63,936 nt of DNA from Acidobacteriota bacterium (lineage in GTDB: Bacteria > Acidobacteriota > Thermoanaerobaculia > Multivoradales > Multivoraceae): the NCBI GenBank assembly GCA_003388555.1, contig QQVD01000073.1, positions 1-63,936 of the forward strand. The letters are read 5' to 3'. A program made the translations under genes and the position numbers. Positions 15,823 to 47,589 of this stretch are shown piece after piece (within the stretch, counting starts at the first letter, position 1; each line of letters opens with the position of its first letter). The notes beneath the pieces were generated by a model. That model was given only the letters and a program-made list of their open reading frames with translations, was not told the DNA's origin and did no database searches.

Positions 15823-17511
15823 GTGGCCGCAGCGCAGGTGGGACGCCGGGGAGACCGGGGTCCCGGATCGATCGTCAGTGCAGCACGCCGCGCGGTGCGG
15901 TGGGGGAGGGGTGCGCCGGCCGCGGCGCTCCTCCTGGTGGCGGCACAGATCGCCCTGCCGCCGGGCGCCGCCGCCGCCGAGGTGCGGGTGTCGCACGCCA
16001 ACGGCCGTGCCGTCTATCTCGACGGCGGACGAGCCGAGGGCCTGGCCGTCGGCGACCGCATCGACGTGCTGCGCGAGGGCCGCGCGGTCGCCCTGCTCGA
16101 GGTGGTGCATCTCACCGAGCACTCGGCCTTCTGCCAGCTGGTCCACGGCTTCAGCGAGGTCGCGGCGGGCGACCTGGCGTTCCCCTCGTCGCTCGACGAG
16201 GTGACGGTGACCGGTAGCGCCGAGCCGCTGCCGCCACCCGAGACGCCGGCCAACCTGCCTCGCCTGGTCGAGCGGCGCCGACGCGAGTCGGTGGTGCACC
16301 TGCCTTCGGTCACCGGCAGCGCCTTCTTCCGCCACCAGGTGCGCACCACGTCGGTAGCCGGCGACGGCTCCCAGCGCCAGTGGCAGGACTCGACGGCGCG
16401 GGTCAGCGTGCGCGGCCGCAACCTCGGCGGCATGCCGGTCTCGCTGCGGGTGCGCGGCCGGGCGCGCACCCGTCAGCGCGACTTCGGCGCCGACCCCGGC
16501 GGCGACCAGCGGATCTACGAGCTCTCGGTCGGCTACGAGCCGCAGGACCACCGCTCGTGGTGGCAGGTCGGCCGCCTCGGCTCACGCCAGGAGACCGGCG
16601 TCGGCTTCCTCGACGGCGCCGCCGGTCAGTGGGGCTTCGGCGGCAACTGGGGCGTCGGCGGCTTCGCCGGCGTCGACGCCGAGGTCGACGACGACCTGTT
16701 CTCGTCCGAGGGCACCAAGGCGGGGGCCTTCATCAGCTGGGCGACGCCGCGCGGCCAACGCCGTTACGGCGAGTTCCTGCTCTCGGCGATCGGCGAGTAC
16801 GCCGCCGGCGAGGTGAGCCGCGAGTACGTCTACCTGCAGTCGCGGGTCGGGCGTCGCGGTCGCTGGTCGATCTACCAGCAGGCCGAGGTCGACTTCCACC
16901 GCGACTGGCGCGCCGAAGTCGCCGAGGCGAGCTCGCAGCTCTCCAACCTGTCGCTCTCCGGCTCCTTCGAGGTCAGCGAGCGGGTGCGCATGACCCTCTC
17001 GTACGACCTGCGCCGGCGATTCCGCGACTACGAGACCCGTGACATCCCGGAGGAGCGCTTCGACGACCTGCTGCGCGAAGGCGCTCGGGCGACGCTCTTC
17101 TACCGCGGCGACGGCGGCCTGGCGCTGTCGTTCGGGGTCGGCTCGCGGGGAGGGGACGGCGACGTCGCCTCGCTCACCTCTTACACCGCCTCGGCCAGTC
17201 ACGGCGACCTCTTCGGCACCAGGGTCTTCGGCGGCGTCGACCTGTCGGCGTTCTCCGGCGATCAGGCCGAGGGCTACCTGGTGACGGTGCGCGCCCGCCG
17301 CGGACTGGGGCGGGGCCGCGACGTCGGCATCACGCTGGGCGACTCGCGTTCCTCGAGCCTGTTCTCCGAGCAGGACCTGGCGCTGCGCTGGGTGCGCGTC
17401 GACGGCAGCGTGCAGCTGCCGCGCGATCTCTACCTGACCCTTGAGCTGGAGTTCGGTCTCGGCGCCGAGTCCGAGGACCGCCAGATGCTGCAGCTCGGAT
17501 ACCGCTTCTGA
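15823..17511 (+). CDS. probable outer-membrane beta-barrel with N-terminal FlgT/SH3-like domain
   Basis: A 562-residue exported protein started at GTG 15823 with GGAGG just upstream. A leader of about 50 residues is followed by a small beta domain (VRVSHANGRAVYLDGG, then GLAVGDRIDVL), like the FlgT C-terminal/SH3-like fold. The long C-terminal part has alternating polar/apolar strands and Tyr/Trp/Arg-rich turns. The protein ends MLQLGYRF, a typical outer-membrane insertion signal with a terminal Phe. No heme motif. It stands 44 bases before the multiheme operon on the same strand, which makes it the natural candidate for the porin of a porin-cytochrome conduit. Confidence 0.7.
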   Translation: MAAAQVGRRGDRGPGSIVSAARRAVRWGRGAPAAALLLVAAQIALPPGAAAAEVRVSHANGRAVYLDGGRAEGLAVGDRIDVLREGRAVALLEVVHLTEHSAFCQLVHGFSEVAAGDLAFPSSLDEVTVTGSAEPLPPPETPANLPRLVERRRRESVVHLPSVTGSAFFRHQVRTTSVAGDGSQRQWQDSTARVSVRGRNLGGMPVSLRVRGRARTRQRDFGADPGGDQRIYELSVGYEPQDHRSWWQVGRLGSRQETGVGFLDGAAGQWGFGGNWGVGGFAGVDAEVDDDLFSSEGTKAGAFISWATPRGQRRYGEFLLSAIGEYAAGEVSREYVYLQSRVGRRGRWSIYQQAEVDFHRDWRAEVAEASSQLSNLSLSGSFEVSERVRMTLSYDLRRRFRDYETRDIPEERFDDLLREGARATLFYRGDGGLALSFGVGSRGGDGDVASLTSYTASASHGDLFGTRVFGGVDLSAFSGDQAEGYLVTVRARRGLGRGRDVGITLGDSRSSSLFSEQDLALRWVRVDGSVQLPRDLYLTLELEFGLGAESEDRQMLQLGYRF

Positions 17512-17555: not shown

Positions 17556-18431
17556 ATGAACCGACCGAGCCATGAGACGACGCACCAGGCGAGCGGCGAG
17601 ACGACCCGCGAGCTGTCGACTGGGCCGGCGCCGCCGACCGATCGTCGACAACGACTCCTCGCGGCCGCGCTCACCACCTTCGCGGTGACGGCCACCTTCG
17701 CCGCCGCCTTCTGGTTCGGCTCGGTGGTGCCCGGCGACGGAGCGGGCGTCGACGTCGGCGCCGCCGCCGCCGCGTCGCAGAGCCGCGCCTCGAACGCCCA
17801 GGCGATGACGCGACCGGGCCCGGCCGCGGTCGCGGCACACGCCGGTGGCGGTCTCGACCCGCAGCAGAGCCGCCAGATCGCCGCGCTCGAGCAGGCGGTG
17901 CAGGCGGATCCAGCCGACCTCGCGCCGCGCCGGCGGCTGGCGCGCGCCCTGGTCGAGGCGGAGCAGTACATGCCCGCCTACCAGCAGGCCAGCGAGCTGC
18001 TGCGCTCGCATCCCGACGATGCCGAGGCGCTCTACGTGCTCGGTGCGGTGCGCCTGCGCATGGGGCGCACCCGCGATGCACTCACCGATCTCTCGCGCGC
18101 CATCGCCTCCGATCCTGAGCACGTCGACGCGCTGCTCGCCTACGGCCTGGCCCAGCTGCGCATCGGCGACAGCGGTGGGGCGGTCGCCACCTGGAGCCGC
18201 GGTCTCGCCGCCGCCGGCGGCGAGCATCCCGAGCTGCAGCGGCTGCTCGCGGTGTCGCGCGCGGCGCGGGCGGAGAAGCAGCGCCAGCAGGCTGCTGGCG
18301 GCGGCGCCGGCAGCTCCGGTGGCTCGGCCGCTTCCGGTCGGAGCGAGCACGGCGGTGGCAGCGGTCGCGGTGGTCTGAGCGCCTGGACCGCCTACGAGAG
18401 CTCTGCGCCGAGGGAGCGGGGCGAGGGTTGA
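17556..18431 (+). CDS. membrane-anchored TPR protein (CcmH/NrfG-like)
   Basis: A 291-residue protein: a polar N-terminus of about 30 residues, one membrane helix (about 35-55), an Ala-rich linker, three or so TPR motifs (about 105-225, such as ALYVLGAVRLRMGRTRDA), and a Gly/Ser-rich C-terminal tail. The strong GGAGGTGACCG site fits the ATG. The shape is that of the CcmH/NrfG TPR subunit which holds apocytochrome c during heme attachment. The next gene, overlapping its stop, encodes 37 heme motifs, so a role as dedicated apocytochrome handler is attractive but inferred. Confidence 0.75.
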   Translation: MNRPSHETTHQASGETTRELSTGPAPPTDRRQRLLAAALTTFAVTATFAAAFWFGSVVPGDGAGVDVGAAAAASQSRASNAQAMTRPGPAAVAAHAGGGLDPQQSRQIAALEQAVQADPADLAPRRRLARALVEAEQYMPAYQQASELLRSHPDDAEALYVLGAVRLRMGRTRDALTDLSRAIASDPEHVDALLAYGLAQLRIGDSGGAVATWSRGLAAAGGEHPELQRLLAVSRAARAEKQRQQAAGGGAGSSGGSAASGRSEHGGGSGRGGLSAWTAYESSAPRERGEG

Positions 18432-21250
18432 GGCGGCTGCTGGCGGTGCTGTCGCGCCTCGTTGGGGGCTCGGTGGGGGCGGCCTGCTCGGCCCTCCTGG
18501 CCGTGCTCTGCCTGGGCGCGGCCCCAGCCGCCGCCCAGCAGCCGACCCAGAACCCGCACGGCGACGTGCAGCTCGACTGCGCCAGCTGCCACACCGCCAG
18601 CGGCTGGAAGCCGCTGCGCGACCCACTGAGGTTCGACCACGACGACACCGGCTTCGAGCTGCGTGACGGCCATCGTGGCCTGGCCTGCGCCGACTGCCAC
18701 GAAGCGCTGGACTTCGCTCCCCCGGAGACCGGGCCGCGCGCCTGCGACGCCTGCCACCGCGCCGACTTCGACGCCACCATCGACCCCGACCACCGTCAGG
18801 CCGGATTCCCCGTCACCTGCTCCTCCTGCCACTCTCTGCGCGGCTGGCAGCCGGCGCGCGAGTTCGACCACGCGGCGACCGGATTCCTGCTCGACGGCGG
18901 TCACCGCGGCGTCGAGTGCATCAGCTGCCACCAGACGACCTTTGCCGGCACTCCCGCGAGCTGCTTCTCCTGTCACGAGCCCGACTACTCCGGCGCGGTC
19001 GACCCCAATCACGTGCAGGCCGGTTTCGAGACCACCTGCGAGTCGTGCCACACCACCCAGGCCTGGCAGCCCGCCGCCTTCGATCACGGCCGCACCGCCT
19101 TTCCGCTCACCGGCGGCCATCGCAATGTCGACTGCTCGTCGTGCCACCAGGAGGGCTACAGCGGCACGCCGACCGAGTGCTACGCCTGCCACGACGCCGA
19201 CTTCGGCGCCACGGTGGACCCCAACCACGTGCAGGCCGGCTTCGAGACCACCTGCGAGTCGTGCCACACCACCCAGGCCTGGGAGCCGGCGACCTTCGAC
19301 CACAACCTGACGGCGTTCGCGCTCACCGGCGGTCACCGGGGCGTCGACTGCGTCGCCTGCCACCAGGACGGCTACAGCGGCACCCCGGTCGACTGCTACT
19401 CCTGCCACGAAGCCGACTTCGCCGGCGTCGCCGATCCCGACCACGTCGCCGCCGGCTTCGACACCAGCTGCGAGTCGTGTCACACCACCCAGGCGTGGCA
19501 GCCGGCGACGTTCGACCACAGCTCGACGGCGTTCCAGCTCACCGGAGGTCACCAGGGACTCGAGTGCGCCGCCTGCCACGCCGACGGCTACGACGACACG
19601 CCGGCGGAGTGCTACGCCTGTCACGAGGCGGACTTCGGCGCCACGGTGGATCCGAACCACGTGCAGGCCGGCTTCGAGCTCGCCTGCGAGTCGTGCCACA
19701 CGACGCAGGCGTGGGAGCCGGCCACCTTCGAGCACGATCTCACCGGCTTCACCCTCGACGGCGGCCACCAGGGCCTCGACTGCGTCTCCTGCCACCAGGA
19801 CGGCTATGAAGGCACGCCCAGCGAGTGCTTCGCCTGCCACGAGCCCGACTTCGCCGCCACCGTCGATCCGAACCACGTCGCCGCCGGCTTCCCGACCGAC
19901 TGCGAGTCGTGCCACACCACGCAGGCGTGGCAGCCGGCCACCTTCGACCACGACCTGACGGCGTTCGCGCTCACCGGCGGCCACCGCGACGTCGACTGCA
20001 TCTCGTGTCATCAGGACGGCTACAGCGGCACGCCCAGCGAGTGTTTCGCCTGCCACGAGCCCGACTACCTCGGCACCACCGACCCCAACCACGCCCAGGC
20101 CGGGTTCGAGGTCACCTGCGAGTCGTGCCACACCACGCAGGCGTGGCAGCCGGCCACCTTCGACCACGACGCCTCGAGCTCGTTCCCGCTCACAGGTGAG
20201 CACCGCAGCGTCGACTGCGTCGCCTGCCACCAGGACGGCTACGACGGCACGCCGACGGAGTGCTTCGCCTGCCACGACGACGACTACGCCGCCGCGGCCG
20301 ATCCCGAGCACGCCAGCGCCGGCTTCCCGACCAGCTGCGAGAGCTGTCACACGACCGGTGGCTGGACCCCGGCCGACTTCGAGCACGACGCGACGATGTT
20401 CCCGCTCACCGGCGCGCACCGGCAGACCGACTGCATCGCGTGCCACGACAGTGGCTACACCGGCACGCCGACCGAGTGCTTCGCCTGCCACGAGGCGGAC
20501 TACTCGTCGGCCGCCGATCCCGAGCACGCCAGCGCCGGCTTCCCGACCAGCTGCGAGAGCTGCCACACGACCGTCGCCTGGGCGCCGGCCGACTTCGACC
20601 ACGCGGCGACCTCGTTCCCGCTCACCGGCAGGCACCAGCAGGTCGACTGCGTCTCGTGCCATCAGGAGGGCTACGCCGGCACGCCGAGCGACTGCTTCTC
20701 CTGCCACCAGGCGGAGTGGAACCAGACCACCGATCCGGTGCACGCCGACGCCGGCTTCCCGACCAGCTGTGAGTCCTGCCACACCACCAGTGCCTGGCAG
20801 CCGGCGACCTTCGACCACGCCGCCACCGCCTTCCCGCTGCGCGGCGAGCACCGCTTCGTCGACTGCGCCGAGTGCCATGCCGACGGCTACTCCGGCACGC
20901 CGACCGACTGCTACTCGTGCCACCTCACCGACTACCAGACGGCCGACGATCCCGACCACCGCGACGCCGGTTTCCCGACCAGCTGTGAGAGCTGCCACGA
21001 CGAGAGCGACTGGAACGACGCCAACTGGGACCACGACGCGCTCTACTTCCCGATCGACTCGGGAGAGCATCGCGGCGAGTGGAACCAGTGCCAGGACTGC
21101 CACGTGACGCCGAGCAACTACCGCCACTTCGAGTGCATCCTCTGCCACGAGCACCGTCAGTCGGAGATGGACGACGAGCACGAGGACGTCGGCGGCTACC
21201 GCTTCGAGAGCCGCTCGTGCCTCTCCTGCCACCCGGACGGGGAGGAGTGA
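18428..21250 (+). CDS. 37-heme c-type cytochrome built of tandem triheme modules
   Basis: A 940-residue exported cytochrome. I count 37 CxxCH motifs. The TTG at 18428 overlaps the upstream stop; an internal GTG at 18443 is an alternative. A leader of about 37 residues ends at AAAQQ. From residue about 50 the protein is 12 consecutive triheme modules followed by one last CLSCH. The typical module is 72 residues: CESCHTTQAW, FDH, then F.LTGGHR..DC.SCH, then GTP.ECFACH, DPNH, with extra conserved His that can serve as distal ligands. There is no membrane anchor or lipobox. Every feature fits a soluble periplasmic or extracellular wire. This repeat grammar is related to the Geobacter/Anaeromyxobacter-type CxxCH repeat cytochromes. 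Confidence 0.9.
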   Translation: MRRLLAVLSRLVGGSVGAACSALLAVLCLGAAPAAAQQPTQNPHGDVQLDCASCHTASGWKPLRDPLRFDHDDTGFELRDGHRGLACADCHEALDFAPPETGPRACDACHRADFDATIDPDHRQAGFPVTCSSCHSLRGWQPAREFDHAATGFLLDGGHRGVECISCHQTTFAGTPASCFSCHEPDYSGAVDPNHVQAGFETTCESCHTTQAWQPAAFDHGRTAFPLTGGHRNVDCSSCHQEGYSGTPTECYACHDADFGATVDPNHVQAGFETTCESCHTTQAWEPATFDHNLTAFALTGGHRGVDCVACHQDGYSGTPVDCYSCHEADFAGVADPDHVAAGFDTSCESCHTTQAWQPATFDHSSTAFQLTGGHQGLECAACHADGYDDTPAECYACHEADFGATVDPNHVQAGFELACESCHTTQAWEPATFEHDLTGFTLDGGHQGLDCVSCHQDGYEGTPSECFACHEPDFAATVDPNHVAAGFPTDCESCHTTQAWQPATFDHDLTAFALTGGHRDVDCISCHQDGYSGTPSECFACHEPDYLGTTDPNHAQAGFEVTCESCHTTQAWQPATFDHDASSSFPLTGEHRSVDCVACHQDGYDGTPTECFACHDDDYAAAADPEHASAGFPTSCESCHTTGGWTPADFEHDATMFPLTGAHRQTDCIACHDSGYTGTPTECFACHEADYSSAADPEHASAGFPTSCESCHTTVAWAPADFDHAATSFPLTGRHQQVDCVSCHQEGYAGTPSDCFSCHQAEWNQTTDPVHADAGFPTSCESCHTTSAWQPATFDHAATAFPLRGEHRFVDCAECHADGYSGTPTDCYSCHLTDYQTADDPDHRDAGFPTSCESCHDESDWNDANWDHDALYFPIDSGEHRGEWNQCQDCHVTPSNYRHFECILCHEHRQSEMDDEHEDVGGYRFESRSCLSCHPDGEE
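18578..21200 (+). repeat. in-gene tandem array, 216-bp unit (72 codons, three heme motifs each)
   Basis: Start positions of the CESCH codons are 19037, 19253, 19469, 19685, 19901, 20117, 20336, 20552, 20768 and 20984. The spacing is 216 bp except for one 219-bp step (an extra Ser in the 20117 unit). Two more divergent units precede these, starting at 18578 and 18818. Neighbouring units differ in many synonymous positions, so the array is old or maintained by selection and is not a recent amplification. Confidence 0.9.
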
Positions 21251-21252
21251 CG

Positions 21253-22146
21253 GTGCGATCGGGCGGTTCGAGGGGGGGCTCGGCGCACCGCGTGGCGCTC
21301 GCCGGCGCCTACCTGCTGCTGGCCGCGACCTGGGCGGCGCTGGCGCTGCACGGCGCCGGCTACTACCTCACCGACTGGGGCGAGCGGGCGCGGCATCCCG
21401 GCTACTGGGACCTCAAGCCCGGCGGCCGCCTGGGCCTGCTCTACGGCTATATCGGCGCGGCGATGATGACGGTGCTGCTGGTCTACTCGCTGCGCAAGCG
21501 GGTCAAGGCCCTGCGCCGTCTCGGAACGCTCTCGAAGTGGCTCGACTGGCACATCCTGCTCGGGGTCTTCGGGCCGCTCTTCGTCGTGCTGCACTCCTCA
21601 CTCAAGGTCGGCGGCCTGGTTTCGATCGCTTTCTGGTCGATGCTGACCGTGGCGCTCAGTGGCGTCTTCGGCCGCTTCCTCTACCTGCAGATCCCACGCT
21701 CGCGCAGCGGCCAGGCGCTGTCGCTGGACGAGATCGAGCAGCGTCGCGGCGAGCTGGAGGCCGAGCTGCGCGAGAACGCCGGCGAGCCCGCCGAGGCCGA
21801 GCGGTGGCTGGCCGGGCTCGACGACCTGGTCGAGCGCTCGGTGCGGCGCGAGGTGTCGCTGCCGCGGCTCGCGGTGTCGCTGCCGGTGCAGGTGGTGCGC
21901 TCGCGGCTCGCGGCGCGCCGCCTCACCCGCTCGTGGGACGTGGCTCCGGTGCTGCGCCGGCGGGTGGCGCGGTTGGCGGTGGCGCAGGTGGCCCTGCGCC
22001 GGCGCATGCTGCTGCTCGAGCGGCTGCAGCGCCTCTTCTTCTGCTGGCACGTCTTCCACAAACCGTTCGCGGTGATCCTCTACTGCCTGATGGTGGTGCA
22101 CGTCGCCGTCGCCTGGGCCACCGGCTACCGCGGACCGCTGGGATGA
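21253..22146 (+). CDS. bis-heme b membrane protein (ferric-reductase-like)
   Basis: A 297-residue integral membrane protein. GTG 21253 follows GGAGGAG by 7 bases; an earlier GTG at 21247 overlaps the upstream stop. Membrane spans by eye are about 13-33, 60-79, 97-115, 121-142 and 266-290, with a charged helical region (about 145-255) between the last two. His100/His114 in the third span and His269/His283 in the fifth are both spaced HX13H, the pattern by which ferric reductase and NADPH-oxidase families hold two stacked b hemes. It lacks their FAD/NADPH domain, but a flavoprotein is encoded two genes downstream. The location between two multiheme cytochrome genes suggests trans-membrane electron transfer. 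Confidence 0.75.
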   Translation: MRSGGSRGGSAHRVALAGAYLLLAATWAALALHGAGYYLTDWGERARHPGYWDLKPGGRLGLLYGYIGAAMMTVLLVYSLRKRVKALRRLGTLSKWLDWHILLGVFGPLFVVLHSSLKVGGLVSIAFWSMLTVALSGVFGRFLYLQIPRSRSGQALSLDEIEQRRGELEAELRENAGEPAEAERWLAGLDDLVERSVRREVSLPRLAVSLPVQVVRSRLAARRLTRSWDVAPVLRRRVARLAVAQVALRRRMLLLERLQRLFFCWHVFHKPFAVILYCLMVVHVAVAWATGYRGPLG

Positions 22147-24002
22147 ACCGTGTGCGTGCGCAGTCCTTTGATGCCGGCTGGTTGCCGAGAGCGCTGGGAG
22201 CCCTCGCGATGACGGTGGCCTGCATGCTGACGCCGGAGCCGGCCTCGGCCCAGCTCTCGCCGGGCCCCCTCAGCGAGGCCCACGCCGGGCTCGAGGGCAG
22301 CCGCTCCTGCCTCGCCTGCCACTCCGGACGCCGCGGCGTCGATCCGGAGCTGTGCCTGGAGTGCCACGGCGCCCTCGAGGCCCGCATCCAGGCCGGACAG
22401 GGGCTGCATGCAGGCAGCGAGTTCGGCGCCTGTGAGCGTTGCCACATCGAGCACCAGGGACGCGACTTCGAGCTGGTCTGGTGGGGCGACGGCGGTCTCG
22501 ACGGCTTCGATCACGAGCGGGTCGGCCACCGGCTCGACGGCGCCCACGCCGAGGCCGGGTGCCGCGACTGCCACCGACCCGGCCTGCTCTCTCTCGCCGG
22601 CGATCCGTCGGCGCTCGGCGTCGACCCCGAGAGCACCTTCCTCGGCCTCGACCGCTCCTGCTCCTCCTGCCACGCAGACCCGCACGCCGGTCAGTTCGCC
22701 GGACGCGACTGCGACGCCTGCCACGACAGCGACGGCTTCGAGGCGGCAACAGGCTTCCCCCACTCGCAGACCCGCTTCGCGCTGCTCGGCGAGCACGCCG
22801 ACGCGCCTTGTGGGAGCTGCCACCCGCAGGCCTCCCGGACGGCGGACGATCGAGCTGCCGCGGCAACGCTGGTCGGCGGCGCCGAGCTCGCGGCGTCACG
22901 CTCGACGACCCGCTACGCCGGCGTCGACTTCGCCGACTGTTCTTCCTGCCACCGCGAGGATCCCCACCAGGGACGGCTCGGCGGGCGCTGCGCCAACTGC
23001 CACCAGCCTTCGGGTTGGAGCGACGGCGCCCGGAGCGGTTTCGAGCACTCGCGCACCGGCTTCGACCTGCGTGGCGCCCACCGCGAGGTGGCCTGCGAGA
23101 GCTGCCACGGCGACGGCCTGGCGCTGGCACGTCCGCCGTCGGGCGAGTGCACCGACTGCCATCTCGACGTGCACTTCGGCGCCTGGAGCCGCAGCGATGG
23201 GGCCTCCGCCGACTGTGGCGGATGCCACCGCGAGACCGGGTTCACCCCTTCGACTTACGACGTCGCGGCGCACGCCGGCAGCGCCTTTCCCCTCACCGGG
23301 CGGCACGCGGCGATCGCCTGCGAGCGCTGCCACGTGCCGGTGCCGCTCGCCCAGCTGGCCGGCGCGGCCGAACCGGCCGACCCGGCCGGCGATCTCGGCG
23401 CCCGCCGTCGCGCGCGGCCTCCGCACGCACCGCCGCCGCGCTTCGCTCCGCTCACCACACCGCCGAGCGAGAGCTGCACCTCGTGCCACACCGATCCGCA
23501 CCGGGCGAGCTTCGCGGCGGTGGCGGAGGAGTGCGTCGACTGCCACGACACCAGCTCCTGGTCGAGCGTCGGCTTCTCCCACCGCGCCACCGGCTTCCTG
23601 CTCGAGCTCGGCCACCGCGGTGTCGGTTGCCGCGACTGCCACGACGTGGAGGGCTCGTCGCAGGACGACCGGAACGCCACCGTGGACCTGCTCTTCGACG
23701 TCGTTTCCACCGAATGCGCGGCCTGCCACGTCGATCCTCACGGCGGCCAGTTCGCGATCCCGTCCGCGGCCGAGAACGGCGTCGCGACCACCTGCGAGCG
23801 GTGCCATCCGCGGCCGCGATTCGCGCCGGCCGAGCTCGACCACGACGACGCCCGCTTCGCGCTCGAGGGCGCCCATGCCGCGGTGGCCTGCGCCGCCTGC
23901 CATCCCACGGTCGAGACCGCGACGGGCCCGCGGGTGCTCTATCGGCCGTTGCCCCACGAGTGCTCCGACTGCCACGACGGCGGTGGGGAGCGGCTGCGAT
24001 GA
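22143..24002 (+). CDS. 20-heme c-type cytochrome
   Basis: A 619-residue exported cytochrome with 20 CxxCH motifs by my count and a signal peptide of about 38 residues (ending PASAQLSPG). It overlaps the preceding gene by ATGA. The motifs are less regular than in the 37-heme protein. They recur as CSSCH..DPHxGxF, C..CH, FxHxxTGFxLxGxH, C..CH blocks typical of multiheme repeat cytochromes, interrupted by Pro/Arg-rich linkers (about residues 400-440). No lipobox or anchor. It could be the periplasmic carrier between the membrane heme b protein and the outer barrel. Confidence 0.88.
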   Translation: MNRVRAQSFDAGWLPRALGALAMTVACMLTPEPASAQLSPGPLSEAHAGLEGSRSCLACHSGRRGVDPELCLECHGALEARIQAGQGLHAGSEFGACERCHIEHQGRDFELVWWGDGGLDGFDHERVGHRLDGAHAEAGCRDCHRPGLLSLAGDPSALGVDPESTFLGLDRSCSSCHADPHAGQFAGRDCDACHDSDGFEAATGFPHSQTRFALLGEHADAPCGSCHPQASRTADDRAAAATLVGGAELAASRSTTRYAGVDFADCSSCHREDPHQGRLGGRCANCHQPSGWSDGARSGFEHSRTGFDLRGAHREVACESCHGDGLALARPPSGECTDCHLDVHFGAWSRSDGASADCGGCHRETGFTPSTYDVAAHAGSAFPLTGRHAAIACERCHVPVPLAQLAGAAEPADPAGDLGARRRARPPHAPPPRFAPLTTPPSESCTSCHTDPHRASFAAVAEECVDCHDTSSWSSVGFSHRATGFLLELGHRGVGCRDCHDVEGSSQDDRNATVDLLFDVVSTECAACHVDPHGGQFAIPSAAENGVATTCERCHPRPRFAPAELDHDDARFALEGAHAAVACAACHPTVETATGPRVLYRPLPHECSDCHDGGGERLR

Positions 24003-25369
24003 ACCTGTCGCCCGAGAGCCTCGACTGGCTGACCACGAGCGGCGTCTGGTTGCTCGCGGTGCTGCTCGCGGCGGGTGTGCTCGGCGCCTATCTGCTGCGC
24101 TTCCGGCGCCGGCTGGCGCAGCATCGCGAGCTCTACGAGGAGGTCAGCGAGGTCGGCGCGACGCGGCCGATGGGGCAGTTCCCCTACATCGATCCGTCGC
24201 TGTGCATCGGCTGCGGCAACTGCGTCGCGGTGTGCCCGGAGGGCGACGTGCTCGGCCTGGTCGGCGGCCAGGCGGTGGTGCTCAACGGCGCCCGCTGCGT
24301 CGGTATCGCCAACTGCCAGGAGGCGTGCCCGGTCGGCGCCATCGAGGTCGGTCTCGGCGACATCAAGGGCCGCGCCGACCTGCCGGTGCTCGACGAGAAG
24401 CAGCAGACGACCATCCCCGGCGTCTACATCGCCGGCGAGCTCGGCGGTCTGTCGCTGGTGCGCAACGCCATCGTGCAGGGGCGCGAGTGCGTGCTCGAGA
24501 TCGCCGGGCGGCTGGACGGCTGCGGAGCCCCCGCCCCCGGGGCTGGTGGCGGTGCCGAGGACGAGGCGCGCACCTGGGACCTGCTGATCGTCGGCAGCGG
24601 TCCGGCGGGGATGAGCGCCGCGCTGACGGCGCGGGAGAAGCAGCTCGACTTCGTCGTGCTCGAGCAGGAGGAGAGCCTCGGCGGCACCATCGACCACTAT
24701 CCGCGGCGCAAGATCGTGCACACCCAGCCGGTGGAGGTGCCGCTCTACGGCTGGGTGAAGAAGACCGAGCAGTCGAAGGAGGAGCTGCTCGAGATGTTCA
24801 CCGGGCTGCACGAGCGTCACCAGCTGCCGATCCGCTTCGGCCAGAGGGTGACCGGCTTCGCGCCCGAGGACGGCGGCGTCGTCGTGGTGCACACCTCGAA
24901 GCGGCGTTTCCGCTGCCGCAACCTGGTGCTGGCGATCGGCCGCCGCGGCACGCCGCGCAAGCTCGGGGTGCCGGGCGAGGAGCTGCCCAAGGTCTTCTAC
25001 CAGGTGCGCGATGCCGAGCAGTACCAGGGGCTCAAGATCGTCTGCGTCGGCGGCGGCGACAGCGCCGTGGAGGCGGCGATGGGCCTGAGTGCCCAGCCTG
25101 GCAACGAGGTGCTGATCTCCTACCGCAAGCCGCGCTTCTCGCGCATCAAGAGCAAGAACCAGACGCGCATCGACGACGAGATCCGCACCGGCAGGGTGCA
25201 GGCCCTGTTCGAGTCGAACCTGCGCGAGATCCGCGAGGACCAGGTGCTGATCGCCGGTCCCGAGGGCGAACGGTGGATCGATAACGACCTGGTCTTCGTC
25301 TTCGCCGGCGGCGAGCCTCCTTACCCGCTGCTGCGCGAGGGCGGGGTGCGCTTCGGGGACCAGCTGTGA
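23999..25369 (+). CDS. membrane-anchored ferredoxin-FAD/NAD(P) oxidoreductase
   Basis: A 456-residue protein with one N-terminal membrane helix (about 16-34). A ferredoxin-like segment follows: Cys69, 72, 75 and 79, then Cys100, 106 and 110, with Ile at the place of the expected second Cys of motif two. Next come an FAD site (IVGSGPAGMSAA, about 195-208) and a nucleotide site (VCVGGGDSAVEAA, about 348). The segment PGVYIAGELGG (about 140-150), which resembles the C-terminal FAD motif of thioredoxin-reductase-like enzymes, lies before the FAD domain, so the order looks permuted. It overlaps the 20-heme gene by ATGA. It likely passes electrons between NAD(P)H and the membrane heme b protein from the cytoplasmic face. 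Confidence 0.85.
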   Translation: MNLSPESLDWLTTSGVWLLAVLLAAGVLGAYLLRFRRRLAQHRELYEEVSEVGATRPMGQFPYIDPSLCIGCGNCVAVCPEGDVLGLVGGQAVVLNGARCVGIANCQEACPVGAIEVGLGDIKGRADLPVLDEKQQTTIPGVYIAGELGGLSLVRNAIVQGRECVLEIAGRLDGCGAPAPGAGGGAEDEARTWDLLIVGSGPAGMSAALTAREKQLDFVVLEQEESLGGTIDHYPRRKIVHTQPVEVPLYGWVKKTEQSKEELLEMFTGLHERHQLPIRFGQRVTGFAPEDGGVVVVHTSKRRFRCRNLVLAIGRRGTPRKLGVPGEELPKVFYQVRDAEQYQGLKIVCVGGGDSAVEAAMGLSAQPGNEVLISYRKPRFSRIKSKNQTRIDDEIRTGRVQALFESNLREIREDQVLIAGPEGERWIDNDLVFVFAGGEPPYPLLREGGVRFGDQL

Positions 25370-25401
25370 ACGGGGCCGACGGGGAAGCAGGGAGGACCGA
25401 G

Positions 25402-26592
25402 ATGAGCCGCAGGAAGACCTTGCATTCGCTGGCCGCCGCCTGGGCGATGGCCATCACGCTGGCGCCGGCCGCCTCCGCGGCGCGCCTCGAGTTCGATCGC
25501 GAGGCCTACGAGTTCCGCGAGGATGCCGGCATCGTCTTCGCGACCCTGCGCCTGGTCGACTGCGCCGCGCCGCGTCCGTCCGGCTCGGTGAGGGTCGAGG
25601 TGGTGGCCGCCGACGGCAGCGCCCGCGAGGGTGTCGACTTCTACGGCTACGCCGCCGGGCCGATCGGCACTCCCGACGACGGGCAGTCGCCCTCCGGTGC
25701 GCCGCGCAGCTTCCGCACCCTCGAGGTGCCGATCCAGATCGTGCACGACGAGGAGAGCGAGGGCGACGAGAGCTTCGAGCTGCGGGTGCGAATGCCGGAG
25801 CAGGCGGCCCTCGGCTGCGACGACTCGGCCTCCGCCGCGCCGCTCTCGACCAGCGCCGCGGCGACGGTGACGCTGGTCGACGTGCCGTTCGATCAGTCGA
25901 CCGTCGGCTTCCTGCGCTCCGAGCTACGCGTCACCGAGACCGATCCGCCGCAGCGGCGCATGGCGCGCTTCGTCGTCGAGCGCACCAGCGGCCGGCAGCC
26001 GATCAGCGTCGTCTGCCAGACGACTCGTGGCGGCAGCGCCGCCGAGGGCGAGGACTTCGCCCCGGTCGCCGAGGTGCTGGCCTGGGGCGAGGGCGACTCG
26101 TCGTCGCGCGACTGCCTGGTGCCGGTGCTCTCCGACGACCTCGGTGAGACCGCGGAGACGGTCGCCGTGGCGCTGCAGGTGGTCGCCGGCGAGGCGGTCG
26201 CCCTGGCGGCCTCGCGTGCCACCCTGCACATCGACGACGACGACTCGCCCGGGCGGGTGCAGTTCGAGAGCACCCGCTTCCTGGCGCGCGAGTCCGACGG
26301 CCGGGCGGTCGTGCGGCTGCTGCGCCGTGGCGGCACCGAGGGCGCCGTCGAGGTGCGTGTGCTGGCGCTCGGGCGTGAGGCCGAAGAGGGGGTCGACTAC
26401 CTGCCGCCGCGTTCGACCGCGCGCTGGGAGGACGGCGAGCAGGGACCGCTCGAGGTCGAGCTGCCTCTGGTGCGCGACGCCGAGCGCGAGCCCTCCGAGA
26501 GCATCGTGCTGTCGCTCGAGATGGTCAGCGCCGAACCGCTGCTCGGCGACCTGCGCAACGCGATCATCGAGATCGAGGACCGCGGCGACTGA
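25402..26592 (+). CDS. secreted Calx-beta repeat protein
   Basis: A 396-residue exported protein: signal peptide (about 1-27, ending PAASAARLEF), then three Calx-beta domains (about 28-155, 165-280 and 285-395). Each has the calcium-binding style pattern of an early E.AG or E.DG, a mid EGVDF or EGVDY, and a late strand with DxxxExxE. ATG 25402 has GGAGG seven bases upstream; the GTG at 25366 overlaps the previous stop but has no such site. It is the last gene of the cytochrome operon and may be a calcium-dependent surface or scaffold part. It ends 28 bases from the convergent acylase gene. Confidence 0.8.
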   Translation: MSRRKTLHSLAAAWAMAITLAPAASAARLEFDREAYEFREDAGIVFATLRLVDCAAPRPSGSVRVEVVAADGSAREGVDFYGYAAGPIGTPDDGQSPSGAPRSFRTLEVPIQIVHDEESEGDESFELRVRMPEQAALGCDDSASAAPLSTSAAATVTLVDVPFDQSTVGFLRSELRVTETDPPQRRMARFVVERTSGRQPISVVCQTTRGGSAAEGEDFAPVAEVLAWGEGDSSSRDCLVPVLSDDLGETAETVAVALQVVAGEAVALAASRATLHIDDDDSPGRVQFESTRFLARESDGRAVVRLLRRGGTEGAVEVRVLALGREAEEGVDYLPPRSTARWEDGEQGPLEVELPLVRDAEREPSESIVLSLEMVSAEPLLGDLRNAIIEIEDRGD

Positions 26593-26620: not shown

Positions 26621-28897
26621 TTACGGCGCCTTGTCGAGCACCGTCCGGCTGGTGGTGTGCCCGGCCAGCTCCTCGGGGCGCCAGCGGGTCGGCTTGAGCT
26701 CGCGCTGACTGAACAGCTTCTCCGCCTGGTCGGCGAAGTGCGGCGAGTCGGGGCGGTCGCTCTGGCCCAGCGGCAGGTACATCCACGACTGCGGCGGCTC
26801 GGTCATCACCACCACCTGGGTCGAGGTCTGGCCGCTGCGGCCCCAGCGGGTGAAGTCGTCGCGCTCGGCGCCGTAGCCCATGTTGCGCAGGGTGGTGGTG
26901 CCGCCGCGGCCACCGCCACCGCCGACCGGCCACGACTGCTCGCCGCGGCCCACCCGGTAGCGGTCGCCGTAGGTCGCCTGCAGCGAGCCGTACTTTTCGA
27001 CCAGCACGTCCATGGCGCGGGCGAAGGCGTCGACCAGCAGACCCGATTCGGCGGCGTCGAGCTCGATCTCCGGCGCCTCGCGGCGCTGCACCGCGGTCAG
27101 GTAGAGCTGGTCGATCTCGTCGCCGAGCGCGGCGCCGGCGTCGCGGTTCTCCTCGGCGAAGACCTGCTCCTTCCACAGGTCGAACTTCAGCGCGCCGCTC
27201 GAGTCGGCCTGCAGCGCGCCGTTCCATCCCAGCAGGTCGTCGATCGCGGCGTCGTAGTGCTGGTGCTCGGCGTAGCGCGCCTCGCCGACCGCCTCGTGCG
27301 CCTGGCGCAGCGCCTCGAGCCAGCGCTCGGCGCCGTAGGGCTGCACGTCGTTGATGTAGGCCATCGCCTCCTCGGCGGTCACCGAGTCGTCGCCGGCGAG
27401 CAGCTCGACGGCGCGCGCTCCGCGCTGGTTGGTCCAGCCGGCGCGCTCGCGGCCGTAGCCGGGGCCGCTGAACAGGTAGTCGACGTGGTCGGCGAGCTGG
27501 AACGGGCTCTCGGGCATCATCGCGTCGGGCGGGATGTTGCAGTTCTGCATCCAGCCCTGGCGTGGGTTGAGGACCTGCAGGTGATCGCTCGCCGGATGGA
27601 AGCCGTTCCACTCGCTGGCCGAGGTGCTGCCGTCCACCGGCAGGCTCCAGTCGAAGCCCGCGGGGCGGCGCGGCACCCGACCGGTGCGCTGGTAGTAGAT
27701 GTTGCCCGAGGTGTCGGCGACCATGACGTTCTGGGGGAAGAGGGTGAGGCTGTCCATCGCCGCCACCGCGCCGGTGTAGTCCTCGGCGAGGTTGAAGGTG
27801 CGCCACGCCTCGAGAGTCACCAGGTCGCCGTAGGCGATCCTGGCGGCGAACGCCTCGTCGCCCTGCTGGGCGATCAGCGGCCCGTGATGCGGCGAGAACC
27901 ACAGGGTGTGGGTCTGCGCTCCGGCGCCCTGGACCGCCAGCTCCACGGTGCGCGCTTCGAGCGGCAGCCACTGCCCGTCGTAGAGCATCTCCGGCGCCGG
28001 CTGCTGGTCGGCGGTCGAGTCGCCCGACAGGTTGCGCACCTTCAGGCGGTAGACGTCGGCGGTGTCGGGGCCGCCGGTGGTCATCGCCCAGGCGACGTCC
28101 CGGTTGTGGCCGAGGCCGATGTAGGGCGATCCGGCCAGCGAGACGCCCGAGCCGACCAGCTCGCCGGCGTGCACCCGCAGCTCCCAGAAGCGTGACGGCC
28201 CCTCCCAGGCCAGGTGCGGATCGATGGCGAGGATCGCGGCGCCTTCGGCGCTGCGCTCGGGGGCGATCGCGAACTGGTTCGAGCCGCGCGCGGTGCGCTC
28301 CCATTCGGGACGCACTCCGGAGCGCACCAGATCCTCGTAGGCCTCGTCGATCGACCAGTTGTAGAGGAAGAGGCGGCCGAAGGCGAGCACCATCGCCTCG
28401 TCGACCTGGCGTCCCCGCCACCACTCGGGCACGTCGTCCGGGTGGGCGACGTAGAAGTCGTTGATCCCCCGCGTGAAGGCGGCGATCTCGGCGCGCAGCG
28501 GGTCCTGCATCTCGGCGAAGCGCCGCTGGCCGATGGCGTAGTGGTCCCACATGTGCGCCCGCAGGTCCGAAGGCACCGCGGCCTCGCCGACCACCGAGGC
28601 GTACTCGCCGATGGCGATCATCAGGTTGTGCAGCAGCTGGGTGGGCCGGTCCTCCGCCTGCGCCCATCCCATCGCGTAGAGACCGCCGACGATCGTCGGC
28701 GAGTAGATGTGGGCGACACCCCACTCGTCGCGGTAGAGCACCGTCTGGCCGGCGTCGTCACCGGCGCCGGGCAAGGCCTGGCCGTCGACTCCGCCACCGC
28801 GATCGCAGGCGAGCGGCAGCGCCAGCGTCAGCAGCGTCAGGAGGGCTGCCGCGCGAGCGGCGACGGGGGAGGCGGTCGGGTGGCTCGGCGACGGCAT
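26621..28897 (-). CDS. penicillin-acylase-family Ntn hydrolase lipoprotein
   Basis: A 758-residue protein of the penicillin amidase/acyl-homoserine-lactone acylase family. Start ATG 28897 has GGAGG at good spacing. The leader ends in lipobox LPLAC, so it is probably lipid-anchored. The alpha part carries GVAHIYSPT and GWAQAEDR. The predicted autocatalytic nucleophile is Ser about 206 in ARGSNQFAI, where the precursor would be cut, and the beta part has SPYIGLGHNRDVAWAMT. Substrates may be acyl amides such as quorum signals or acylated peptides; the sequence does not decide. It is a full-length family member. Confidence 0.88.
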   Translation of the reverse strand: MPSPSHPTASPVAARAAALLTLLTLALPLACDRGGGVDGQALPGAGDDAGQTVLYRDEWGVAHIYSPTIVGGLYAMGWAQAEDRPTQLLHNLMIAIGEYASVVGEAAVPSDLRAHMWDHYAIGQRRFAEMQDPLRAEIAAFTRGINDFYVAHPDDVPEWWRGRQVDEAMVLAFGRLFLYNWSIDEAYEDLVRSGVRPEWERTARGSNQFAIAPERSAEGAAILAIDPHLAWEGPSRFWELRVHAGELVGSGVSLAGSPYIGLGHNRDVAWAMTTGGPDTADVYRLKVRNLSGDSTADQQPAPEMLYDGQWLPLEARTVELAVQGAGAQTHTLWFSPHHGPLIAQQGDEAFAARIAYGDLVTLEAWRTFNLAEDYTGAVAAMDSLTLFPQNVMVADTSGNIYYQRTGRVPRRPAGFDWSLPVDGSTSASEWNGFHPASDHLQVLNPRQGWMQNCNIPPDAMMPESPFQLADHVDYLFSGPGYGRERAGWTNQRGARAVELLAGDDSVTAEEAMAYINDVQPYGAERWLEALRQAHEAVGEARYAEHQHYDAAIDDLLGWNGALQADSSGALKFDLWKEQVFAEENRDAGAALGDEIDQLYLTAVQRREAPEIELDAAESGLLVDAFARAMDVLVEKYGSLQATYGDRYRVGRGEQSWPVGGGGGRGGTTTLRNMGYGAERDDFTRWGRSGQTSTQVVVMTEPPQSWMYLPLGQSDRPDSPHFADQAEKLFSQRELKPTRWRPEELAGHTTSRTVLDKAP

Positions 28898-29020
28898 GGT
28901 GCATCCTCCTCGAGGAACGCACGGCGGCCGCCCGCCCTTTTGCCGGGTGGGCTCCTCCGACCGCGTTCTCACATGGCTGGTGCGCTTCAGCCTAGCAGCG
29001 CCGCGCTCGGCGACGTCGAC

Positions 29021-46541: not shown

Positions 46542-47554
46542 CTGACGCCGCCCTCGCTCTGGTAGGCGAGCCGCGGTGTGCCGAGGTGGTCGTGCGCCAT
46601 GCTGCGGCGCAGCTCGCCGTCCTCGTCGCCGTCGAAGCCGCCCGCGATCGTGATCTGGTGCTGGGAGCCGCGGTAGATGTAGTCGCGCTGCCAGCCGGCG
46701 TCGAGGCGCGTGAAGGTGCCGCCGCGTGATCCCGGGCAACCGGCTCCCGCGCAGTCGTTGCTCCAGGCGGAGAGATCGCCCGACTCGAAGCCGTCGGCGA
46801 AGATGAAGTCTCCGCGCAGGTCGAACTCGCTGAGCAGCTTGCCGCCGAGGTCGCGCAGGTAGAGGGTGACGTCGTTGTCTGGAGCGGCCTCGGGGCGGAT
46901 CACTTCGAGGCGCTCGTCGTCGGCGGTGTAGAAGTAGCGCCACTGACGGCTCTGGTGCGATTCCTCGATCTTCAGGTTGAAGGGATCGAAGGTCGAGCTG
47001 ATGGTCTGGCTGCTGGAGCCGGGGCGTTGGGTGACGTTGCCGGAAGCGTCGAAGGTGTAGCCGCCCATCAACCGGTTGGTCGCCGCGTCGACGCCGGGCT
47101 GCACGGTGTCCACTGGCAGGGGGTTGCCGCCGAGGGTGCCACGGCGGACTTCTGAGCGATTGCCGAACACGTCGTAAGCGTAGCTCTCGGCGAAATCGCC
47201 GGTGGTCTTCTCGGCCGCCACGCCGATGAGGCGGCCGGAGCCGTCGTAGAAGTACTCCTCCTCGTTGCCCAGCGGCCCTGCCGTGGCGACGTTGCCGGAA
47301 GCATCGTAGGTGAGCAGGAGGGTGATGCCTTCGCCGGAATCTGCGACGGAGTAGGACGCCGGGCGCTGCATGCCGCTCGGATCCTGGCCGTGGGAGTACG
47401 TCATCGTCACCCAGGTGCCGGGGTTGGCCTGGTCCTGGAACTCGTTGAGGGTGGCCTGCGCGAACATCCCGTTCGGGTGATAGCGGATCTCCGGGATGTA
47501 GGGGTGGGCGCCGAAGTCGTCCTCTACCGAGAGGAATCCCCAGACGACTGGCAC
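46538..47554 (-). CDS. orphan Rhs core fragment (5' and 3' truncated)
   Basis: 338 codons of Rhs/YD-repeat protein, nearly the same as part of the larger Rhs gene, with about 17 residue changes by my reading. It begins within a GACTGGCAC repeat (GTG CCA GTC), so the first ~9 residues come from the repeat. It stops one residue after LAYQSEGGV, before the conserved Rhs core end (GRFMGIDPI in the other copy) and so without a toxin tail. It has no signal peptide. It is probably a displaced, nonfunctional cassette that may serve as recombination partner for the intact core. Confidence 0.8.
   Translation of the reverse strand: MPVVWGFLSVEDDFGAHPYIPEIRYHPNGMFAQATLNEFQDQANPGTWVTMTYSHGQDPSGMQRPASYSVADSGEGITLLLTYDASGNVATAGPLGNEEEYFYDGSGRLIGVAAEKTTGDFAESYAYDVFGNRSEVRRGTLGGNPLPVDTVQPGVDAATNRLMGGYTFDASGNVTQRPGSSSQTISSTFDPFNLKIEESHQSRQWRYFYTADDERLEVIRPEAAPDNDVTLYLRDLGGKLLSEFDLRGDFIFADGFESGDLSAWSNDCAGAGCPGSRGGTFTRLDAGWQRDYIYRGSQHQITIAGGFDGDEDGELRRSMAHDHLGTPRLAYQSEGGVR
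46543..47529 (-). repeat. 987-bp Rhs duplication, copy 1
   Basis: Colinear with 48960-49946 at a constant offset of 2417 bases, with no net insertion or deletion that I can see. The left edge is at the TGACGCCGCC that follows the small membrane gene start; the right edge is 12-14 bases from a GACTGGCAC element. Confidence 0.85.
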
Positions 47555-47589
47555 TTCTCCTCCGCCCAGACGACTGGCACTTCTCCTCC
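47541..47589 (-). repeat. dispersed GACTGGCAC elements, tandem copies B and C
   Basis: CAGACGACTGGCACTTCTCC occurs twice with a 26-bp period (47541 and 47567). The pair sits exactly at the 5' end of the orphan Rhs fragment and supplies its apparent start codon. Confidence 0.8.

What the first reader, a model, noticed from the sequence alone, without database searches (positions are those of the whole stretch)
18428..21250. A 37-heme cytochrome made of twelve perfectly phased triheme modules
The sequence shows 37 CxxCH motifs in 940 residues, with CESCH recurring every 216 bp for ten units (one step of 219). Very few bacterial cytochromes carry this many hemes at one per ~25 residues in such a regular array. 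The constant phase suggests a linear solenoid of stacked hemes, possibly a filament or an extended wire across the periplasm, and the unit count may vary among strains.
Basis: partly seen in the sequence, partly recalled or inferred. Interest (0 to 1): 0.88.

Follow-up and report, generated by a model that had tools for sequence, protein, structure and literature searches.

The report
Variable-length heme wire of PCC3 conduit
This gene encodes a protein strung with 37 iron-carrying heme groups, built from repeated three-heme blocks whose number differs between related bacteria, and it sits in a gene set for passing electrons between the cell interior and the outside.

Summary
In detail: 940 codons, 37 CxxCH motifs, ten CESCH copies at steps of 216 bp (one of 219). 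Ten modules are in phase; the ends are distinct caps. Around it lie genes for a predicted 22-strand barrel, a diheme-b-type inner membrane protein, a 20-heme cytochrome and a membrane-anchored 4Fe-4S/flavin oxidoreductase. The inner membrane protein carries the hallmarks published for PCC3 porin-cytochrome clusters, so this is best read as a PCC3-type conduit, a known but untested kind, with the array as its 'extracellular' cytochrome. New here: 31 of 34 complete arrays have 3n+1 CxxCH; two others have CX3CH at the missing place and one an assembly gap. Arrays differ by whole modules gained inside while end modules stay orthologous; the partner keeps 20-24 hemes while arrays run 16-52. Partner and array, or flavoprotein and array, are fused in three genomes each. 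A cultured bacterium, Emticicia oligotrophica, carries the set on a plasmid with a 40-heme array. Heme geometry is untested: the structure prediction failed (pLDDT 43.7). Location and wire function are inferred.

The parts
15823..17511 (+). Outer-membrane beta-barrel protein (562 aa) with an N-terminal small beta domain (SH3-like by eye); presumed porin of the complex
   Evidence: AlphaFold2 model of residues 52-562, mean pLDDT 79.3, 22 barrel strands by my count of the DSSP list; Foldseek/VIA-align matches are outer-membrane barrels; no Pfam or NCBIfam family; homologues lie next to the array in relatives
17556..18431 (+). TPR protein with an N-terminal hydrophobic stretch; role unknown
   Evidence: Pfam TPR families; homologues near the array in some relatives
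18428..21250 (+). 37-heme array cytochrome (the finding)
   Evidence: 37 CxxCH, 39 other His; Pfam Cytochrome_C7 4.8e-37
18428..18535 (+). Signal peptide by eye (residues 1-36, LGAAPAAA/QQ), no lipobox
   Evidence: sequence; lipobox pattern scan; no signal-peptide program was run
18536..18817 (+). N-cap, 3 hemes, spacing 36/19/25, NPHG...C..CHT..GW.PL motif
18818..20983 (+). Ten triheme modules of 72-73 aa (30 hemes); protein identity between modules 49-76%
20984..21247 (+). C-cap, 4 hemes, spacing 35/15/28, FECI.CHEH...GY.YES..C.SCHP.G
   Evidence: 16-sequence alignment A1
21247..22146 (+). Inner membrane protein, read as five helices and two b hemes (PCC3/PCC4-type IMP)
   Evidence: WX3HX13H at residues 98 and 267, SGxxG at 138; conserved in alignment A5; weak Ferric_reduct match 0.018
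22143..24002 (+). 20-heme cytochrome, presumed periplasmic partner (ATG at 22143 overlaps the preceding stop)
   Evidence: 20 CxxCH; Cytochrome_C7 1.2e-26; start from the bases shown
23999..25369 (+). Membrane-anchored oxidoreductase: N-terminal hydrophobic helix, two 4Fe-4S sites, FAD/NAD(P) domain (FNR)
   Evidence: Pfam Pyr_redox_3 1.8e-42, Fer4_10 1.4e-11; first cluster motif and nucleotide-binding motifs; helix and second cluster read by eye
25366..26592 (+). Next gene of the operon (stop-start overlap), Calx-beta-like by eye; no match in the relatives' loci
   Evidence: overlap; no match

Best explanation
The locus encodes a PCC3-type porin-cytochrome conduit. The 5-helix b-type membrane protein exchanges electrons with the quinone pool or with the Fe-S/flavin oxidoreductase; the 20-heme cytochrome carries them across the periplasm; the triheme array is the outer cytochrome, held at the barrel and reaching outward as a single-chain wire. 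Its ends are fixed contacts and its interior is a spacer that evolves by gain and loss of whole three-heme modules. Shown: gene set, module anatomy, enough His for two ligands per heme, whole-module length changes, nearly constant partner, fusions. Inferred: electron flow and its direction, barrel-array contact, outer location, wire-like heme packing.
For: Inner membrane protein has the published PCC3/PCC4 hallmarks in the window and all three motifs in 30 of 33 homologous frames. Array (E<=1e-3) and that protein (E<=1e-30) occur in the same 15 of 60 nearest genomes, the window's included; a sixteenth array match, G042, is weak (5e-8) and was dropped. Barrel gene next to the array: BLAST match in 23 of 33 loci with an array and flank (four of them over the N-terminal domain only), two more (L109, L113) by their ends. 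A named cultured bacterium, Emticicia oligotrophica DSM 17448, has the same set in a row on plasmid pEMTOL02: IMP with both motifs, FNR (38% identity), 23-heme partner, 40-heme array (42% over 921 columns), barrel (19%, 2e-8), after a cytochrome c assembly gene. Other His are at least as many as hemes in 34 of 34 complete arrays; in 239 heme triplets the distal-His columns are 100%, 100% and 90% His. CxxCH number is 3n+1 in 31 of 34; the rest are CX3CH (2) or a gap (1). First modules pair with first modules in 9 of 9 pairs, last with last in 7 of 9. Partner 20-24 hemes vs array 16-52 in 26 loci. Partner-array fusions in L102, L103, L115. Of 13 smaller cytochromes that I picked from similar gene sets of a second genome group, 7 have a convincing lipobox, as surface cytochromes do. 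By the published heme-number/length line (27 hemes per ~200 A; PMC7096707) 37 hemes would span about 27 nm.
Against: No model or structure of the array; heme spacing untested. No published PCC3 protein could be compared by sequence. Extracellular location is not shown; of 29 own-phylum arrays only one (L037, ambiguous) has a lipobox-like pattern. The barrel has 22 strands, fewer than many published PCC3 porins (up to 42 predicted), and in the window it is upstream of the array, with the TPR gene between. The published PCC3 set has no FNR gene, and in 3 genomes the FNR is fused to the array, which would tie the array to the inner membrane unless the joint is cut. In S. lithotrophicus ES-1 both PCC3 clusters went down on Fe(II) (PMC8788666), so the function of the kind is unproven.
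Confidence: 0.6

Rival explanations
1. Periplasm-spanning wire: the array itself bridges the inner membrane to the barrel.
For: About 27 nm expected for 37 hemes is near a periplasm's width; soluble signal peptide; FNR-array fusion in genus g17 places array and inner membrane together.
Against: A bridge should have a fixed length, yet arrays range 16-52 hemes and differ two-fold within a genus while the 20-24-heme partner is nearly constant and is the published periplasmic candidate.
Confidence: 0.2
2. Electron capacitor: a periplasmic or surface heme store whose capacity, not reach, is what varies.
For: Capacitor roles are proposed for GSU1996 and for PCC3 cytochromes; variable size with no fixed length would fit; 37 hemes hold 37 electrons.
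Against: Conserved caps at both ends, positional orthology of most end modules and fusion to the partner suggest end-to-end contacts rather than a loose store. Not exclusive of the best explanation.
Confidence: 0.15
3. Polymerising cytochrome nanowire of the OmcS/OmcE/OmcZ kind.
For: Regular heme array; a short profile match to OmcS (3.4e-4).
Against: The repeat is inside one chain, the ends are capped and differ from the modules, and the match covers 43 of 72 positions and stands among many c-type cytochromes. No polymer test was possible.
Confidence: 0.04

Closest known systems
PCC3 porin-cytochrome clusters (He et al. 2017, PMC5566968; Gallionellaceae, PMC10734462)
   Same: Porin, large repeat-rich outer cytochrome of variable heme number, large periplasmic cytochrome of few sizes, ~300-aa inner membrane protein with two WX3HX13H and SGxxG (passages; tested)
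   Different: Partner has 20 hemes (published 21, 24, 27); 22-strand barrel; FNR gene in the operon; strict triheme period with caps, whole-module length changes and two kinds of fusion, which the passages I read do not describe
GSU1996-type dodecaheme c7 polymer
   Same: Tandem triheme c7-like domains in one chain
   Different: GSU1996 has four domains and one His-Met heme per domain; here ten modules plus caps, two Met after the signal peptide, other His as many as hemes. PDB entries that I recall as its domains match only weakly (3oue 0.0072, 3ouq 0.079, 1rwj 0.082)
Karst PCC group with an FNR gene (PMC13264449)
   Same: Large cytochrome next to a ~20-strand porin, ferredoxin-NADP+ reductase gene close by in 7 of 11; Acidobacteriota among the PCC hosts (passages)
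   Different: Heme counts and sequences not seen; described as decaheme
MtrCAB and OmbB-OmaB-OmcB conduits
   Same: Barrel + periplasmic + outer cytochrome plan
   Different: 10 hemes each in Mtr; 5-14 periplasmic and 1-15 outer (typical motifs) in Pcc; no such array (passages)
Inner-membrane-protein modules without porin (e.g. Alteromonas and Bradyrhizobium plasmids)
   Same: Distant relatives of the inner membrane protein (2.3e-18 to 2.5e-23 by profile A5) and a 7-heme cytochrome related to the partner's first part
   Different: No array, no 20-heme partner and no barrel match in the stretches fetched

Membership tests
PCC3 | Inner membrane protein ~300 aa, five helices, SGxxG on helix 4, WX3HX13H on helices 3 and 5 | tested here: met
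   299 aa; W98-H102-H116, S138-G139-G142, W267-H271-H285; hydropathy peaks, partly overlapping, that I read as five helices; definition
PCC3 | Predicted beta-barrel porin gene in the cluster | tested here: met
   22 strands, pLDDT 79.3; barrel matches
PCC3 | Large periplasmic cytochrome (median 21; 21, 24 or 27 in Gallionellaceae) | tested here: met
   20 CxxCH in the window, 20, 23 or 24 in relatives: one below the published values; location not tested
PCC3 | Second cytochrome with many hemes in sequence repeats | tested here: met
   37 hemes, ~25 aa per heme, repeats
PCC3 | That cytochrome is on the outside of the cell | not testable with these tools
   lipobox-like signals in part of the relatives of a second genome group only
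PCC3 | Sequence homology to published PCC3 proteins (e.g. Slit_0867-0870) | not tested
   no published PCC3 sequence was reached; the plasmid searches found a full set in Emticicia (not said to be PCC3 in what I read) and small relatives
GSU1996-type triheme polymer | One His-Met ligated heme per triheme domain | tested here: not met
   two Met after the signal peptide for ten modules and caps; 39 non-CxxCH His for 37 hemes; feature
GSU1996-type triheme polymer | Tandem triheme c7 domains | tested here: met
   period of three CxxCH, Cytochrome_C7 4.8e-37
GSU1996-type triheme polymer | Hemes in a line with 3-5 A edge-to-edge gaps | tested here: inconclusive
   model failed, pLDDT 43.7
OmcS/OmcE/OmcZ filaments | Head-to-tail polymer with ligands shared between subunits (recalled) | not testable with these tools
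   no structure; the chain has as many other His as hemes
OmcN-type large Geobacter cytochromes | Surface Ig-like domain beside 34 hemes (from a cut-off passage) | tested here: inconclusive
   no such domain by Pfam in the window protein at 0.001; no OmcN sequence compared

The most novel reading that the evidence does not exclude
A protein wire whose length is an evolvable trait: fixed end-pieces plug into a constant conduit while the interior grows or shrinks by three-heme modules through recombination, so related species would carry wires of about 10 to 38 nm (by the published length line) on the same machinery. In one genus the wire is made as one polypeptide with its NAD(P)H/Fe-S flavoprotein, in other families as one with the periplasmic cytochrome, and in Emticicia the whole set travels on a plasmid.
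Probability: 0.3. Interest if true: 0.75.

Novelty: new variant of a known kind. Interest (0 to 1): 0.55.

Why it matters
PCC3 conduits are predicted in many bacteria, and the papers I read call their function untested. A strict module with fixed caps and natural arrays of 13 to about 52 hemes is a ready-made length series: one can ask directly how current, reach or charge storage scales with heme number in a single chain. The fusions give single-chain versions that fix the order of the parts, and Emticicia oligotrophica DSM 17448 offers a cultured host.

Tried and rejected
Structure of the array: AlphaFold2 on a 13-sequence alignment gave pLDDT 43.7; not used. Solved relatives: phmmer of the whole protein found none at 0.01; a module profile found only general c-type cytochrome matches, best nonaheme cytochrome 2.2e-7. 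Mtr/Pcc porins are not among the 50 listed fold matches; absence there shows nothing. Assembly collapse of repeats considered: the longest exact DNA repeat inside arrays is 14-115 bp (55 in the window), short against common read lengths, so gross collapse is unlikely but single-module errors are not excluded. High acidity as a functional trait rejected: net charge -122 in the window but near 0 or positive in some other families. DmsE decaheme family rejected: NCBIfam TIGR03508 scores 61 bits against a cut-off of 192. Phage origin: only two short PHROGs matches of unknown function. Rfam: none over gathering score. Chance for the 3n+1 rule: naive binomial 3e-12, overstated because arrays are related.

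Results against me, or dropped or mended. Three of 34 arrays are not 3n+1 as counted (39, 51, 39): G316 and G302 have a CX3CH in the C-cap where the motif is missing, G031b a run of N, i.e. an assembly gap of unsure length; I entered them as 40, 52, 40. One search's figures for G058b/G031b were out of register because of that gap and are replaced. Last modules do not pair with last in 2 of 9 pairs (G055/G081, G058a/G058b). The 239 triplets were picked by spacing and include some cap triplets and arrays cut by contig ends. Array loci without a barrel found next to the array: L117 and L103 none, L107 only a partial tblastn match; in L102, L115, L118, L119, L120 only the ends of the downstream gene were looked at. 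FNR was not found in L102, L103, L115, L118-L121. Genomes G001-G023 of the window's family lack array and inner membrane protein (23 of 23), and G039, a fourth g17 genome, has no array match. In the second genome group (phylum of G497; 90 of 377 have the inner membrane protein at 1e-20) I fetched 20 loci and looked closely at 13 smaller cytochromes picked; only 4 are 3n+1 and spacings vary, so the rule is claimed only for arrays with both caps as in the window. The lipobox pattern flags 8 of 13 there and 1 of 29 in the own phylum; I discount L158:8483 and call L037 ambiguous. In Spirosoma, Bradyrhizobium and Alteromonas plasmids the neighbours are small relatives without array or barrel; 42 of 52 plasmid records with a partner-like match were not listed and not looked at.
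Full report
What is there. The open frame at 18428-21250 (+) encodes 940 aa with 37 CxxCH motifs. Motif spacing is 36/19/25, then ten triplets of 32-33/15/25, then 35/15/28. Ten CESCH motifs stand at eight steps of 216 bp and one of 219. Shuffled proteins give at most 3 motifs in 1000 trials. The ten modules are 49-76% identical in protein and 63-81% in DNA to each other, so this is a diverged repeat, not a fresh expansion. Besides CxxCH there are 39 His and, after the signal peptide, two Met: enough His for two ligands at each heme. Across 239 heme triplets from 29 array frames, picked by spacing and including some cap triplets and broken arrays, the two inner distal-His columns are all His and the third is 90% His.

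Surroundings. From 17556 to 26592 six genes follow one another with five 4-base stop-start overlaps: TPR protein, array, inner membrane protein, 20-heme cytochrome, Fe-S/flavin oxidoreductase, and a Calx-beta-like protein. Upstream at 15823-17511 lies a protein predicted as a barrel of 22 strands with an N-terminal small beta domain (pLDDT 79.3); structure matches are outer-membrane barrels, and no Pfam or NCBIfam family covers it.

Relatives. With the array as query, 16 of 60 nearest genomes (the window's own included) match, one of them (G042) only weakly. With a profile of the last module and C-cap (alignment A1), 32 of 148 genomes of the class and 47 of 396 sampled genomes of the phylum match at 1e-20. 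I fetched 20 stretches (order level) and 20 (19 of those genomes are in the table, G142 only in that). The inner membrane protein profile (A5) hits 15 of the same 60 genomes at 1e-30, exactly those with a strong array match. The 23 same-family genomes have neither.

Length rule. I could define 34 arrays complete from N-cap to C-cap. Their CxxCH counts are 13 (1), 16 (2), 19 (5), 22 (5), 25 (3), 28 (5), 31 (2), 34 (1), 37 (2), 40 (2), 46 (3), and 39, 39 and 51: 31 of 34 are 3n+1. Of the other three, two have CX3CH in the C-cap at the missing place and one has a run of N there. The change is therefore by whole modules. Pairs of relatives show how: G058a and G031a modules pair as 1,2,3,4,5,6,6,7, G025 and G040 as 1,2,3,4,5,6,6,7; G058b and G031b, N-cap counted as 1, as 1-7,6,7,10,10,11,11,12 at 72-95% identity, as if two modules had been doubled together. 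In G477/G326, 5 of 8 and 6 of 9 modules resemble a module of their own array most. Over nine pairs the first module pairs with the first in 9 and the last with the last in 7. Ends are mostly fixed; the interior turns over. The partner, in 26 loci with both, has 20-24 hemes (SD 1.5) against 16-52 for the array (SD 9.2) (counts typed, three arrays corrected by one).

Gene order and fusions. In order-level relatives with flank the barrel gene follows the array in 13 of 13 by BLAST; in the wider set 10 of 20 by BLAST, four of these over the N-terminal domain only, two more by their ends. The inner membrane gene lies beside the 20-23-heme gene in the 13 order-level loci that show both. In L102, L103 and L115 the 24-heme part and the array are one frame of 51-54 motifs without a hydrophobic stretch between them, whereas in L118-L120 the array has its own signal-peptide-like start. 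In the three g17 genomes with an array (G045, G055, G081) the oxidoreductase runs in frame into the array through what elsewhere is the signal peptide. Three species sharing it makes a sequencing error unlikely; whether the joint is cleaved is unknown.

A named, cultured relative. tblastn of the array against the plasmid collection matches one record of 72,556, Emticicia oligotrophica DSM 17448 plasmid pEMTOL02 (Bacteroidota, warm spring water): 42% identity over 95% of the array. In a row it has a CcsA/ResB-type cytochrome c assembly gene, an inner membrane protein with both WX3HX13H and SGxxG, an FNR (38% identity), a 23-heme partner (30%), a 40-heme array with the same kind of caps (36/16/16/34/19/25 ... 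34/15/26) and a barrel-like protein (19%, 2e-8). 40 is again 3n+1. Its record is annotated only as 'cytochrome c3 family protein' and 'hypothetical protein'.

A second genome group. Using the inner membrane profile on the phylum of G497 (reached through L029, titled an uncultured proteobacterium; the tool does not tell whether this phylum differs from the window's, but none of the 110 genomes listed bore an earlier handle), 90 of 377 genomes match. Of 20 stretches fetched, several pair that protein with a 20-27-heme cytochrome and smaller ones. Some of these repeat with a three-heme period of about 70 aa and end in a similar C-cap motif; others do not, and only 4 of the 13 examined are 3n+1. 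Seven of 13 have a convincing lipobox, which suits an outer-membrane anchor.

Compared with what is known. He et al. 2017 (PMC5566968; passages) named PCC3: porin, extracellular cytochrome (median 34 hemes, up to 85, repeat-rich), periplasmic cytochrome (median 21) and a ~300-aa inner membrane protein with five helices, SGxxG and two WX3HX13H. The window's protein meets each motif. The Gallionellaceae pangenome paper (PMC10734462; passages) gives 21, 24, 27 and 10-35 hemes and reports long, mostly linear models. Edwards et al. 2020 (PMC7096707; passages) give the length rule of about 27 hemes per 200 A. A 2026 karst survey (PMC13264449; passages) notes an FNR gene beside a large cytochrome and a ~20-strand porin in 7 of 11 clusters. 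So the kind is known. I did not see the 3n+1 rule, the fixed caps, interior turnover or the fusions in those passages or in the listings of my ten paper searches; supplements were not available, and no search named Emticicia.

Mechanism. Shown: the parts, their conservation, co-occurrence and length behaviour. Inferred: electrons pass between NAD(P)H or quinone, the b-type protein, the partner, the array and the outside, in either direction. The nearly constant partner is the better candidate for the fixed periplasmic span, the variable array for a free-ended outer wire; by the published line 37 hemes would reach about 27 nm. Against a location outside: no direct evidence in the window's own lineage, and the oxidoreductase fusion in one genus. 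Heme packing remains untested because the model failed.

Verdict. Observation confirmed; interpretation partly supported; a PCC3-type conduit, not a new kind, with a modular variable-length array as its noteworthy feature.

Noticed in passing
L030:2725-8646, L034:3276-7844, L162:348-5111: In the three g17 genomes with an array the Fe-S/flavin oxidoreductase is in frame with the array, with no stop between.
   Followed up: partly
L102:4647-8873, L103:5878-10944, L115:6185-9964: Partner cytochrome and array fused into single frames of 51-54 heme motifs.
   Followed up: partly
L164 (NC_018749.1 75639-98356): Emticicia oligotrophica plasmid pEMTOL02 carries the whole gene set with a 40-heme array and a cytochrome c assembly gene.
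   Followed up: partly
L165:11243-12783, L166:8231-9783, L167:8075-9729: Plasmids of Bradyrhizobium, Alteromonas (beside a NiFe hydrogenase) and Spirosoma (near copper genes) carry small relatives: a Fe-S or FAD protein, a short inner membrane protein and a 7-heme cytochrome.
   Followed up: partly
window 18428-21250: The array has a single lysine and a net charge of about -122; not shared by distant relatives.
   Followed up: partly
L031:6887-12626, L033:13773-19059: Two tandem arrays of different length (28+46 and 25+39 motifs, the last with an assembly gap) in the two g12 genomes found.
   Followed up: partly
window 18392-21232 (-): 946-aa antisense open frame opposite the array, probably a by-product of G+C content.
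   Followed up: no
window 25366-26592: Calx-beta-like protein coupled to the end of the operon, without a match at the relatives' loci.
   Followed up: no
window 26621-28972 (-): Large protein that looks like a penicillin-acylase-type hydrolase by eye; not searched.
   Followed up: no
window 47539-47589: Perfect tandem repeat of a 26-bp unit, two copies.
   Followed up: no
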